A stretch of DNA of 64,000 bases from Leucocoprinus leucothites (lineage: Eukaryota > Basidiomycota > Agaricomycetes > Agaricales > Agaricaceae), in NCBI GenBank assembly GCA_013368445.1, contig JAACJO010000005.1, positions 1,922,001 through 1,986,000 on the forward strand, in the 5' to 3' direction. Each line of letters opens with the position of its first letter. Position 1 is the first letter of the stretch. Position numbers and translations under genes: made by a program. This document shows positions 53,786-60,323 of this stretch, piece by piece. The notes beneath the pieces were generated by a model. It was given only the letters and a program-made list of their open reading frames with translations, ran no database searches and was not told where the DNA came from.

Positions 53786-55444
53786 ATGCCTACTCTAGGT
53801 TCACCAACAGACATTGAACCAAATCCATTTATCATGTCTACAGATGAACCCAGAAGGACCCTACCAGGTCATTTTGCAAATCCGAGCCCACAAACTCAAC
53901 CACAGCCAATTCGCAAAAGTCAGAACTCTACTTCCGCAAACTCACAGACTCATCAGTCACAAACTCAGAATCAAAGCATTACACAAAACTCGAACTCAGA
54001 CAGTATGCCTTCTACTCCAAATATGCCTATGCCCTCTACTTCGGGTGCCCCCAAGTGGGATGGTAGTTCAGGAACACTTAGGAATTTCCTAAGGACACTA
54101 GAACACCTATTTAAAGCAACCAGTACCACATCAGACATAGAAAAGCTGAATTGGACAACTGGTTACATTGATGCAGACATTAGCGAAGAGTGGTCCAGCT
54201 TTCGAGAATTCAAAGATAATGATTGGGCTGCCTTCATGAAAAGACTCAAGAAAGAGTATCCTGAAGTGGTCGAAGAGGAGCAAGGTTCTATGAACCAGCT
54301 TCATAAGCTATGCCAAAGCAATCAAGGCATTAGTTTAGTAGATGAAGACCAACTACTTAGTTTTAAGAGACACTTTTGCTATATTGCACAGAAGTGTTTA
54401 GAACCACCAGCTGTAACTGGGAATCATGAACTTGTCGAAATGTTTGTACGAACATTAGACACAACCTTCCAGGATTCTTTAAATGCACGACTAAGTATAC
54501 AAGGAACTGTCAAGGTCAATGCAACAGGAAAAAGCAGACAGGAGGATCCTTACACTTTAGAGGAAGTAATCAATAAAGCAGTAGAACTAGTTAGTGGAAA
54601 GACTATTGCACGAGCAATGAAGTATACCCCAACTAGCATAATAAAAAGGGAAAAGGCAGATGTCGAGTTGCGAGCGCCTATAGCTTTCACGAAAGAAGAA
54701 GCCATGCAAAAAGTGACTTTGCCTTTGCCCCCAGACATAGATTCATTGCAACAAGAAATCAATGTATTAAAAACTATGTATGAGAAACAAGAGAAAGGAT
54801 GTGAAAAGCATGAATGGTCGGTGCAGAGTGCACTAGATAGTTTGAAGACTATGATGCAGAACAATACATCACAGTCATCTAACTCATCAGTCAGGTATCA
54901 GCAGAGTTGCAAAAATGTAGCACCTCTGCAAATGACTTGAAAGTGTTATTACTGTTTTGATACTGGCCATTTGTTCATGATGTGTCCTGTAAAAGCAGAA
55001 GATGAAAAGAAAGGCTTAATTTTGGTTGAGGGATTCTCAGTTCGTTTCACAAATGGAGAAGCTATACCAAGTGAAGCCAATGTTTCAATTAGAGATTGCA
55101 TCAAGAAATATTTACCAGCTACCATAGCCGCAGTGGCTCTGCAAGAATACAATGAAGACTTTCATGACTTCTTCGATAGAGTACCAGACACCGGTTATGT
55201 AGCAGCTGTAAACTCTCAAATGACAATTCAGTCGAGACCACAAACCTTTGTGAACAAGTCCTCTCATGAAGTAGATCAATTAAAGAATAAATTATCTAAA
55301 CTAGAGGCACTGTTACAGAAAGCGGGTATTGAGGACTCGTCATCTGAGTCAGAAGAAGAAATAGAAGTCTTGCTAGCGAAGCTAGCTAAGTCATTTACCC
55401 AGACAAGAAAAGGAGAAAGCTCGACTAAGAAGTTGGGTTTCTAG
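53786..55444 (+). pseudogene. gypsy 2 gag (capsid and zinc knuckle)
   Basis: Frame 2. The frame is open from about 53636, but the first in-frame ATG is at 53786. A Ser/Gln/Asn-rich head precedes the capsid-like region (WDGSSGTLRNFLRTLEHLF, YPEVVEEEQGSMNQLHKL). A zinc knuckle CYYCFDTGHLFMMC (C-x2-C-x4-H-x4-C) follows at about 54944-54985. An in-frame TGA at 54938-54940, immediately before the knuckle, breaks the gene; the rest is open to a TAG at 55442-55444. The TGA is explained by one C-to-T change in a CGA codon. Ends in a Ser/Glu-rich linker and basic residues. Confidence 0.8.
55435..55441 (+). promoter_or_regulatory. Candidate -1 ribosomal frameshift site, gag to protease
   Basis: Heptamer GGGTTTC, read in gag frame as (TT)G GGT TTC directly followed by TAG. 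It fits X-XXY-YYZ. A -1 slip moves ribosomes into frame 1, where protease lies. Downstream RNA structure not evaluated. Confidence 0.55.
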
Positions 55445-56562
55445 AAGGTCTGAGGAAGAAGCCTGCCATCGAGAAAAAGGTTCAATTCTGAAGGCAAAAG
55501 GTTTCTGAGGACAATAAAGCAAAGAACTCAGAAGAATCAGAAAATGAATTAGAGAAAGAAAAAGGGACTCAGGGTGATAATCAAACTTCAACCACCAAAT
55601 TGCCTGAGCTCCTTTATAGAAAGGTACTGTCTATGGTGCTGGTAGTTGAAGTTCCCCCTATGCTGGCGCATTATATGTGACAATATCCTACAAAAGCGCC
55701 AGGCTACAAGTACAAGGCACTGGTAGAGGATGGTGTAGATCCACAAGAAATAGCGGAAAGAATTATGGAAAGCAAAATTAAACTCACTTCACGAGAACTC
55801 ATGACAGTGTCACCTAAGATAAGGGCAGCTGCTAAGGAGAACATTTCCGTGAAACAAGTATTAGCAGAGGAATCAAGTGACAAGGATAAAGGGACATTCA
55901 ATAAAGTAGAAACCTCAAATGAAATAGTCCCCACAATAGTAGAAGTTAATTCATTAGAAATACCTACTAAGGTACAAGGCAAGGTACTAGACAAAGATGG
56001 AAAGCGAATAGAGGCATGGACTATCACAGATCCTATCTTGCAGTATCTCAAAACCTTAGTGCCAGAAGAGAGAGATTGTCAGGTTTTCTCAAACTTATCA
56101 GAGGGTTTCGAGGAAGTAGCAGGCAGTCTGGCCTCACTAAGAGTAGTGCCGACCTTAATAAACAGAGTTTGCGAGGAAGAGGCACTTCTTGACAGTGGGT
56201 CACAAATTATCTCTATGGATAAAAAGACTGCTGCTGCAGCTAAGATTACTTGGGATCCTGCACTAAGCATTAATATGCAGAGTGCCAATGGAGGGATCAC
56301 GTGAATGTGTGGACTTGCGAAAAATGTACCTTTCACCTTTGGGGAGGTGACAATATTATTGCAAGTTCACATTATGGAACAAGCACCATATAGAGTGCTG
56401 CTAGGACAACCTTTCGATGTTATTACAGAAAGCAAAATAGTAAACCAGAAGGATGGAAATCAATATCTACATATAACTTGCCCCAACTTGAAACTCAAAG
56501 CAACACTACCAACCTATCAGAAAGGACAGTTGCCTCAGGCAGTTAGGGTAAATTTTCAGTGA
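55442..56562 (+). pseudogene. gypsy 2 protease region
   Basis: Frame 1, entered by the -1 shift. A Lys/Glu-rich linker leads to an aspartic protease with active site ALLDSGSQI (Asp codon at about 56191) and later YRVLLGQPFDV, which matches the family's second conserved turn (LLGRPW-type). In-frame TGA codons at 55489, 55678 and 56302 break it; all fit C-to-T in CGA. The frame ends in TGA at 56560-56562. Confidence 0.75.
56550..56556 (+). promoter_or_regulatory. Candidate -1 ribosomal frameshift site, protease to pol
   Basis: Heptamer AAATTTT, read in protease frame as (GT)A AAT TTT, one codon before the TGA at 56560. It fits X-XXY-YYZ. A -1 slip leads into frame 0, where the RT begins SLNDFKSIPGREV. 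Downstream RNA structure not evaluated. Confidence 0.5.
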
Positions 56563-59500: not shown

Positions 59501-60323
59501 GTGGGGAAGTCTAGTCAAAATTGTAACAGACAATGGCTCCCCTTTCAAGAAAGCAGTTGGATGGCTCGCAGAAAAGTATGGAATTAAAGGAGTCACAATT
59601 TCTCCTTACAATTCACAAGCCAATGGCACTATAGAAAGACCACATTGGGACCTTAGGTAGATGTTATTTAAAGTAACTGGTGGTGAAGTAAAGAAATGGT
59701 ATTGGTCACTACACCATGTAATGTGGGCTGATAGGATCACTATTAGAAAAGGGACCGGGTGTTCACCTTACTTTATGGTAACAGGCACCCATCCGACTTT
59801 GCCATTAGATGTTATTGAAGCAACATGGTTAGTCAAATATCCTGATAGGATGGTCTCTACTACAGACCTAATAGGACTTAGAGCCCAAGCGCTCATGAAG
59901 CATGTTTCACATGTAGAAGAAATGTGTTCACGAACAAACAAGGAAAAGATAAGGAGGGCTTTACAGCTCAAAAGTGACTTTAAGCATAAAATTAAAGAAT
60001 TCAACCTAGTACCTGGTAGTTTGGTACTAGTGAAGAACTCTGCAATAGAAAGCTCTGCTGATAGAAAAATGAAGCCTCACTATCTAGGACCCATGGTGGT
60101 TATTAAGAAACTGAAAGGGGGCGCATTCATATTAGCAGAACTGGATGGGTCAGTATGACAAAATAAGGTTGCGGCATTTAGGGTCATACCTTACCTAGTG
60201 AGGAGGCACATCAAGTTTAGCGAAAAAGTCAAAGACTTGCTTGACACCTCTCGCGAAGGTCTGAAACTGTTGGAAGACACAGAAGTAGAAGCTGTCAAAT
60301 TGGATAATGAAAGTGATACTTGA
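56553..60323 (+). pseudogene. gypsy 2 pol: RT, RNase H, integrase
   Basis: Frame 0. RT: TGVYEPSNSSYHS, LRLVHNLEPLNKVT and catalytic YIDDVLM (57651-57671). RNase H-like tail: LAVDTLWCAVDYYIYQ, LVHKKGKTFGLDGL. Integrase: HHCC zinc finger (HDDMGHRGAF...LCHLCQVC), catalytic Asp in LHADTVHM, Asp in VTDNGSPF, Glu in ANGTIERPH, and a C-terminal GPMVVIKKLKGGAFILAELDG. In-frame stops at 57309 (TGA), 57510 (TGA), 57573 (TAG), 59658 (TAG) and 60156 (TGA) break it; each is one C-to-T or G-to-A step from Arg, Gln or Trp. The true stop is TGA 60321-60323. All catalytic residues of RT and integrase are kept. Confidence 0.85.

What the first reader, a model, noticed from the sequence alone, without database searches (positions are those of the whole stretch)
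53786..60323. gag, protease and pol lie in three successive -1 frames with a slippery heptamer at each junction
Seen: gag is in frame 2, protease in frame 1, pol in frame 0. GGGTTTC at 55435-55441 is in the exact X-XXY-YYZ phase and is followed at once by the gag stop TAG; AAATTTT at 56550-56556 is in phase and sits one codon before the protease stop TGA. Known: this heptamer rule drives -1 programmed frameshifting in retroviruses and in yeast L-A virus, and two tandem -1 shifts are known from betaretroviruses. Fungal Ty3/gypsy elements usually use none or one shift. Two independent in-phase heptamers next to both stops are unlikely if the offsets came from random indels, so a two-frameshift gag-pro-pol element is inferred.
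Basis: partly seen in the sequence, partly recalled or inferred. Interest (0 to 1): 0.85.

Follow-up and report, generated by a model that had tools for sequence, protein, structure and literature searches.

The report
Mushroom retrotransposon with two frameshifts
A decayed mobile element in a mushroom genome, its still-open relatives, and probably many relatives in other fungi keep their three main genes in three successive reading frames, with a ribosome slip site at each join, an arrangement otherwise known from certain animal retroviruses.

Summary
The window copy is dead (nine extra in-frame stops; the four tested against sister copies vary in a CpG pattern), but its two -1 offsets are not decay. 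The gag stop after GGGTTTC is the same in 9 of 9 close copies and AAATTTT-CAG-TGA in 8 of 8. A sister family (pro region 39%, pol start 57% identical) has three near-identical copies with gag, pro and pol open in frames 2, 1, 0, joined at GGGTTTC|TGA and AAATTTT|TAA. A third, decayed family has GGGTTTC|TAG and GGATTTT|TAA. More distant families with fused gag-pro keep one join, GGGTTTT|stop. Proteins from elsewhere fit: 114 of 120 listed pro homologues (of 441) have Phe in the last 12 residues (23.7 expected), and 10 of 11 gags reaching that region (of 37 hits) end in GF or DF; one NCBI protein runs from pro into pol, skipping the junction. A fold 6 nt after the first heptamer is predicted in three of three families; the second site's is weak. 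The passages read give double -1 shifts to beta- and deltaretroviruses; ten searches listed no fungal case. Host inferred: Leucocoprinus leucothites. Shifting was not measured.

The parts
52094..53476 (+). 5' LTR (3' partner lies outside the window at about 65832-67213 in window numbering)
   Evidence: blastn of window 51501-53600 against the stretch 60301-67400: 1383 nt, 96.0% identity; further LTR copies in the genome
53474..53491 (+). primer-binding-site-like stretch directly after the LTR
   Evidence: TGGAGCCCACCGTGAGGG, shared with the sister element on C47 (40 nt at 92.5%); no tRNA found for it
53786..55444 (+). gag, frame 2, interrupted by TGA at 54938, ends at TAG 55442-55444
   Evidence: weak Ty3 capsid match below Pfam's cut-off; homologues in metagenomes
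55435..55441 (+). slippery heptamer 1, G|GGT|TTC, gag/pro
   Evidence: kept in L040-L045 and L039; intact in 6 of 9 close copies
55442..55444 (+). gag stop TAG, directly after heptamer 1
   Evidence: TAG in 9 of 9 close copies, window included
55448..55512 (+). predicted RNA fold beginning 6 nt after heptamer 1
   Evidence: minimum-energy fold, z = -2.3; the same 6-nt spacing in L040 and L039, 7 nt in L041 and L042, outer stem lost in L010's best fold; prediction only
55435..56562 (+). pro (DUF4100-like region and aspartic protease), frame 1, interior stops at 55489, 55678, 56302
   Evidence: DUF4100 26.2 bits, just below its cut-off of 27.9; Asp_protease_2 above cut-off in the sister ORF
56550..56556 (+). 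slippery heptamer 2, A|AAT|TTT, pro/pol
   Evidence: the same in 8 of 8 close copies that hold this place, window included; identical in L040-L043
56560..56562 (+). pro stop TGA, one codon after heptamer 2
   Evidence: the same in 8 of 8 close copies that hold this place, window included
56561..56601 (+). predicted hairpin 4 nt after heptamer 2 (CCUC/GAGG core also seen in L040 and L039)
   Evidence: weak statistical support
56550..60323 (+). pol (RT, RNase H, integrase), frame 0, with five interior stops
   Evidence: RT_RNaseH and Integrase_H2C2; RT stretch of the sister ORF matches a Ty3 chain

Best explanation
A Ty3/gypsy-type LTR retrotransposon lineage of mushroom-forming fungi expresses Gag, Gag-Pro and Gag-Pro-Pol from one mRNA by two successive -1 ribosomal frameshifts. 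Most ribosomes stop at the gag stop that follows G_GGU_UUC. A fraction slips one base back there, helped by the adjacent stop codon and a fold starting 6 nt downstream, and reads pro. A fraction of those slips again on A_AAU_UUU (or G_GAU_UUU) at the end of pro and reads pol. Shown: frames, heptamers, phase, short overlaps, conservation in close copies and in a sister family with open frames, and matching protein ends elsewhere. Inferred: that ribosomes slip there, the rates, and the part played by the fold and the stop. The window copy is a dead member.
For: Frames 2, 1, 0 in three families. Heptamer 1 GGGTTTC plus immediate stop in 3 of 3; heptamer 2 AAATTTT in 2 of 3 and GGATTTT in the third. 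Junction stops constant while the four interior stops examined vary among copies. Three copies (L041 and L042 99.5% and 99.4% identical to L040) with gag, pro and pol open over the fetched 3.6 kb; pol frame 1279 aa in two, 694 aa in the C51 copy. Pol's first AUG lies 135, 93 and 74 codons after the slip site in L040, L039 and the window, which speaks against a separate start. Protein ends: F in the last 12 aa in 114 of the 120 listed pro homologues of 441 (expected 23.7), NF 35 (1.1), DF 39 (0.3); [GD]F at the end of 10 of the 11 gag homologues that reach that region, of 37 hits. Downstream 75-nt fold at gag/pro z -2.3, -1.6, -2.9, outer stem equalled by 11, 11 and 2 of 500 shuffles.
Against: No expression data. 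Outside this genome only proteins were seen, so the codons at their junctions are unknown. The homologues are related to each other, and the protein search only admits proteins of 0.55-1.75 times the query's length, so fused gag-pro proteins could not show up; the counts do not tell how common fusion is. P0106, an NCBI protein of Leucoagaricus sp., runs from pro into pol and skips the junction (1 of 120 with a pol match): a predicted intron, a deletion or a true fusion, DNA not seen. The six pro homologues without a terminal F end before or away from the usual C-terminus. The fold window was chosen after a first look: at 50 and 100 nt the gag/pro z values were only 0.3 to -0.7 and -0.1 to -1.5. 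The pro/pol hairpin is weak (z -1.6, -2.0, -0.4 at 50 nt; positive in all three families at 70 nt), and the fused families show no fold (z -0.5 to 0.6). Pseudoknots were not tested. 3 of 9 close copies have lost the strict heptamer 1; decayed L044 and L045 deviate at the second join.
Confidence: 0.88

Rival explanations
1. The offsets are two chance indels in a decayed copy, and the heptamers are coincidence.
For: The window copy has nine interior stops, and some other copies carry many indels (L013, L045).
Against: L010 and L014 have no internal indel against the window over 3.9 kb. The sister family with open frames has the same frames and heptamers. Chance about 0.009 per overlap in the window.
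Confidence: 0.02
2. Pro and pol are reached by re-initiation or internal initiation after the upstream stop, not by slippage.
For: The third family has an AUG 6 codons into the pro frame, and many of the listed pro homologues begin with a Met at about that place.
Against: L040 has no AUG until codon 59 of pro and codon 135 of pol, the latter inside a stretch shared by the families. It does not explain conserved in-phase heptamers right before the stops.
Confidence: 0.05
3. Splicing, or slippage of the polymerase or RT on the heptamer, joins the frames in RNA.
For: One NCBI protein, P0106, joins pro to pol with about 26 residues around the junction missing, as a predicted intron would do. The NCBI model of the C47 gag starts in the LTR, by my reading of P0121 beside L059, so gene models here use introns. 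Transcriptional slippage exists in general (recalled).
Against: Pro and pol are open right back to the heptamers, in 16-40 nt overlaps in the three families, which an intron would not require. Runs of 3-5 identical bases are short for polymerase slippage (recalled).
Confidence: 0.05

Closest known systems
Betaretroviruses and deltaretroviruses (gag, pro, pol in three frames, two -1 shifts)
   Same: Same order, two -1 shifts, heptamers of the X_XXY_YYZ kind, protease in its own middle frame. Double shifts of these two genera are stated in PMC3835772 (passages). That M-PMV-like viruses use A_AAU_UUU and MMTV G_GAU_UUA at pro-pol is recalled, not from a call.
   Different: Host is a mushroom; pol has the RNase H - integrase order of Ty3/gypsy elements and an RT stretch matching a Ty3 chain. 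It works like them; membership is not claimed and no env was identified.
Single-shift or single-ORF fungal Ty3/gypsy elements
   Same: LTRs, gag, aspartic protease, RT, RNase H, integrase.
   Different: A survey of fungal Gypsy elements found most full-length ones with one or two ORFs (PMC2864245, passages), and a mycovirus review gives Metaviridae a single ORF (PMC10224137, passages). Here there are three frames.
Fused gag-pro families in the same genome (L049-L055, L056, L057)
   Same: DUF4100-like region and protease (L050), -1 pro/pol join at GGGTTTT followed by a stop.
   Different: Gag and pro share one frame (744 aa open in L050, frame 802 aa at the L057 place; L049 has one stop in it and only 293 aa are open at the L056 place); one shift only.
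Plant virus site G_GAU_UUU with a nearby stop (pea enation mosaic virus)
   Same: The third family's second site GGATTTT followed by a stop. [quoted passage not shown]
   Different: Unrelated virus; one shift.

Membership tests
Ty3/gypsy (Metaviridae) LTR retrotransposon | two LTRs | tested here: met
   1383 nt at 96.0% (window element) and 1330 nt at 99.0% (C47; its 3' LTR runs to the contig end)
Ty3/gypsy (Metaviridae) LTR retrotransposon | pol order RT - RNase H - integrase | tested here: met
   RT_RNaseH before Integrase_H2C2 in the window ORF; RT stretch upstream in the sister ORF matches solved RTs, among them a Ty3 Gag-Pol chain at E 1.4e-07
Ty3/gypsy (Metaviridae) LTR retrotransposon | Ty3-like capsid | tested here: inconclusive
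   PF19259 21.5 bits, below the cut-off 29.1; not found in L040 gag
Eukaryotic -1 programmed frameshift site | X_XXY_YYZ heptamer in the phase of the upstream frame | tested here: met
   Gag/pro in 3 of 3 families; pro/pol strict in 2 of 3, GGATTTT in the third; definition, and tolerance of GGA, in PMC3542737 (passages)
Eukaryotic -1 programmed frameshift site | stimulatory RNA structure 5-9 nt downstream | tested here: inconclusive
   Predicted at 6 nt in 3 of 3 gag/pro sites, strongest at 70-75 nt; weak at pro/pol; none in the fused families; pseudoknots not tested
Eukaryotic -1 programmed frameshift site | measured shift of the reading frame | not testable with these tools
   needs a reporter, ribosome profiling or mass spectrometry
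Betaretrovirus/deltaretrovirus | gag, pro, pol in three successive -1 frames | tested here: met
Betaretrovirus/deltaretrovirus | retroviral RT lineage | tested here: inconclusive
   Five solved chains matched at E up to 0.001, best 4ol8 and the Ty3 chain 7q5b, then 7kse and 7ksf (a retroviral protease-RT, foamy virus as recalled) and 8r0s; no beta- or deltaretrovirus named, no RT tree built
Betaretrovirus/deltaretrovirus | env gene | not tested
   The 5.5 kb between pol and 3' LTR was looked at only for ORFs, and two of its ORFs for Pfam domains

The most novel reading that the evidence does not exclude
A widespread Agaricomycete lineage of Ty3/gypsy elements has evolved, independently of retroviruses, a conserved two-step -1 frameshift cascade (G_GGU_UUC then A_AAU_UUU or G_GAU_UUU, often with a stop right at the site) that sets a three-level Gag : Pro : Pol ratio; families with fused gag-pro in the same genome show the gain or loss of the first step.
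Probability: 0.75. Interest if true: 0.7.

Novelty: new variant of a known kind. Interest (0 to 1): 0.64.

Why it matters
In the passages read, double -1 frameshifting is given to two retrovirus genera. Finding it conserved in fungal LTR retrotransposons suggests that a separate dose of protease, between Gag and Pol, is useful to elements not known to leave the cell. Families with one and with two shifts in one genome make the gain or loss of a recoding step directly testable, in fungi close to tractable laboratory mushrooms. It also means that gene finders may split or truncate these polyproteins; the middle pro ORF carries a region resembling a Pfam domain of unknown function (DUF4100).

Tried and rejected
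Random indels: rejected by the open-framed sister copies. Re-initiation and splicing: argued against, not excluded; P0106 speaks for a gene model that skips the second junction. Relatives in IMG/VR contigs: none by two scans. Gag homologues from L040 gag: only 2, one of them the element's own gag, so the window gag piece was used instead (37 hits). The motif used to say which gags reach their C-terminus was chosen after seeing their ends. PBS tRNA: the first pattern was mistyped by one letter (no match); the second found only the two elements themselves. LTRs: missed at first, because the elements are about 14-15 kb long; found by genome search. Rfam over 53000-60400: nothing at E up to 1. Literature: ten searches, of which I saw listings of at most 20 papers each with the starts of abstracts, listed no title or abstract start about a fungal element with two -1 shifts; (DUF4100) gave no paper. 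Passages of seven papers were read and the outline and abstract of one more. A first alignment was wrong because three loci were on the other strand; redone.
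Full report
WHAT IS THERE. The window lies on contig C5 of a 47 Mb genome in 110 contigs. A gag protein found by search equals that of a sister element and is a named protein of Leucocoprinus leucothites on a 121,586-base contig, the length of contig C47, so the host is inferred to be that mushroom. The feature is an LTR retrotransposon of about 15.1 kb. 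Its 5' LTR is 52094-53476; its 3' LTR, 96.0% identical, lies at about 65832-67213 in window numbering, outside the window. Gag, pro and pol lie in frames 2, 1 and 0. Pol carries RNase H and integrase domains in the Ty3/gypsy order, and the sister pol's RT stretch matches five solved chains, among them a Ty3 Gag-Pol chain.

THE TWO JUNCTIONS. GGGTTTC is followed at once by TAG; AAATTTT by CAG and TGA. The overlap of the frames is 16 nt at each place. Over 4413 codon slots of three elements (window, L040, L050), 10 in-phase heptamers occur away from the five junction ones, so each window overlap would hold one by chance with probability about 0.009, and the overlaps of the other elements with 0.011 to 0.033; L039's second site is not a strict heptamer and does not count here.

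THE COPY IS DEAD BUT THE OFFSETS ARE NOT DECAY. The window copy has nine interior stops in the three genes. Of 511 differences between the window and two copies (L010, L014), 284 are CpG-type transitions. Across the window and eight close copies (91-96% identical), each of the four interior stops examined in gag and pro is missing from some copies, whereas the gag stop at 55442 is TAG in 9 of 9. The five interior stops of pol were not compared. The string AAATTTT-CAG-TGA is present in 8 of 8 copies that hold the place, window included; one copy (L012/L026) is interrupted by an insertion and keeps it on the far side, and L016 no longer aligns there. Two copies (L010, L014) have no internal indel against the window over 3.9 kb. 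Heptamer 1 is intact in 6 of 9, AGGTTTC in 2 and AGATTTC in 1; its first G is a CpG site, as the CG, TG and CA states show.

SISTER FAMILIES. Protein searches of the same genome with the window's pro and pol pieces found more distant families. L041 and L042 are 99.5% and 99.4% identical to L040, and in the fetched stretches gag, a 373-aa pro ORF and pol are open in frames 2, 1 and 0. The pol frame is 1279 aa long in two of them and 694 aa in the C51 copy. Their joins read CAG GGT TTC TGA and GAA AAT TTT TAA: the same two heptamers, each followed directly by a stop, at 39% (pro region) and 57% (start of pol) protein identity to the window element. Three decayed copies, L043, L044 and L045, keep GGGTTTCTGA; at the second join L043 keeps AAATTTTTAA, L044 has lost the strict heptamer, and L045 has an indel just after it that puts the end of pro and the start of pol in one frame with a stop between. 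A third, decayed family, L039, has the same three frames with GGGTTTC-TAG and GGATTTT-TAA. More distant families (L049-L055, L056, L057) have gag and pro in one frame and a single -1 join at GGGTTTT followed by TAA or TGA; L049 and the L056 place have stops in that frame.

OUTSIDE THIS GENOME. The sister pro ORF has 441 homologues, 120 of them listed, including proteins of Leucoagaricus sp., Cyathus striatus and Lentinula raphanica. So a separate pro ORF occurs widely; but the search admits only proteins of 0.55-1.75 times the query's length, so fused gag-pro proteins could not appear. In those 120, F occurs in the last 12 residues in 114 (expected 23.7), NF in 35 (1.1), DF in 39 (0.3), GF in 7 (1.1); the F nearest the end is the last residue in 26, second to last in 18, and sixth or seventh from the end in 63. 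NF and DF are what A_AAT_TTx and G_GAT_TTx would give. The six without F end before or away from the usual C-terminus. None of the 120 matched the L040 or window gag pieces; one, P0106 of Leucoagaricus sp., also matched pol: it runs from pro into pol with about 26 residues around the junction missing, which could be a predicted intron, a deletion or a true fusion. With the window gag piece, 37 gag homologues were found. Eleven reach the region just before the gag end (motif chosen after seeing the ends), and 10 of these end in GF or DF, eight at the very end and two as GFQMYQ; the other 26 stop earlier, two of them with GF in their last 8 residues, about what chance gives. One gag and one pro homologue (P0152, P0006) share a longest contig of 4063 bases and may come from one contig. 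DNA of these was not available, so codons are unknown.

DOWNSTREAM STRUCTURE. At gag/pro, a fold whose outer stem begins 6 nt after the heptamer is predicted in all three families; the 75-nt windows have z -2.3, -1.6 and -2.9, and the outer stem is matched by 11, 11 and 2 of 500 dinucleotide shuffles. In L041 and L042 the stem begins at 7 nt, and L010's best fold lacks it. In a sliding scan the window at this place is the lowest (window element) or second lowest (L040, L039) of the 17 tested. The length was chosen after a first look: 50- and 100-nt windows gave z 0.3 to -0.7 and -0.1 to -1.5. At pro/pol a CCUC/GAGG hairpin recurs 4-6 nt downstream, but with weak statistics, and coding constraint could explain it. 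The fused families L050 and L055 show no fold (z -0.5 to 0.6). Pseudoknots were not tested.

HOW IT MOST LIKELY WORKS. Tandem tRNA slippage on G_GGU_UUC shifts some ribosomes from gag into pro; a second slip on A_AAU_UUU (or G_GAU_UUU) shifts some of those into pol, giving Gag > Gag-Pro > Gag-Pro-Pol. The X_XXY_YYZ rule, the 5-9 nt spacing and tolerance of GGA come from PMC3542737 (passages). G_GGU_UUU is named among the most shift-prone sites, and a stop 3 nt after G_GAU_UUU was important in a plant virus, in PMC5009743 (passages). Separate initiation of pol is unlikely: the first AUG lies 135, 93 and 74 codons after the slip site in L040, L039 and the window, 39 in the fused family L050.

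COMPARISON AND NOVELTY. PMC5009743 says that certain retroviruses use two -1 shifts and describes LTR retrotransposons with pol shifted against gag (passages). PMC3835772 assigns double shifts to beta- and deltaretroviruses (passages). PMC2864245 found mostly one or two ORFs in fungal Gypsy elements (passages). Ten literature searches listed no report of two shifts in a fungal element; the lists were cut at 20 papers or fewer and the library lacks most subscription journals. I therefore call it a new variant of a known kind: the mechanism is the classical one, but the two-step arrangement in a fungal Ty3/gypsy lineage appears undescribed.

Noticed in passing
window 60457-63702 (minus strand); C47:115491-119498 (L060, L063): Between pol and the 3' LTR (about 5.5 kb in the window element) both this element and the sister element carry several minus-strand open frames (up to 270 aa in the window, 312 aa in C47), possibly exons of an antisense gene. 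Only one weak match between the two was found (33 aa at 48%), and no Pfam domain in the two window ORFs tested.
   Followed up: partly
window 53474-53491; L059: The stretch after the 5' LTR looks like a primer-binding site but no tRNA with that 3' end was found by two exact-pattern searches, one of them mistyped; priming may be unusual.
   Followed up: partly
L001-L008, about 440-520 on the coding strand: Another RT-bearing family has an upstream frame ending ...GAA AAA TAG and its pol frame in -1 with an overlap of under 20 nt: a possible single-shift element with a GGAAAAA site.
   Followed up: no
window 52357-52387 and 58791-58821: A 31-nt stretch of the 5' LTR is 87% identical to a stretch of pol.
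   Followed up: no
L010 and L014 against window 53500-57400: Copies differ largely by CpG-type transitions (284 of 511 differences in these two), consistent with methylation-linked decay.
   Followed up: partly
L017 near window 55754: One copy carries a 645-nt insertion in pro.
   Followed up: no
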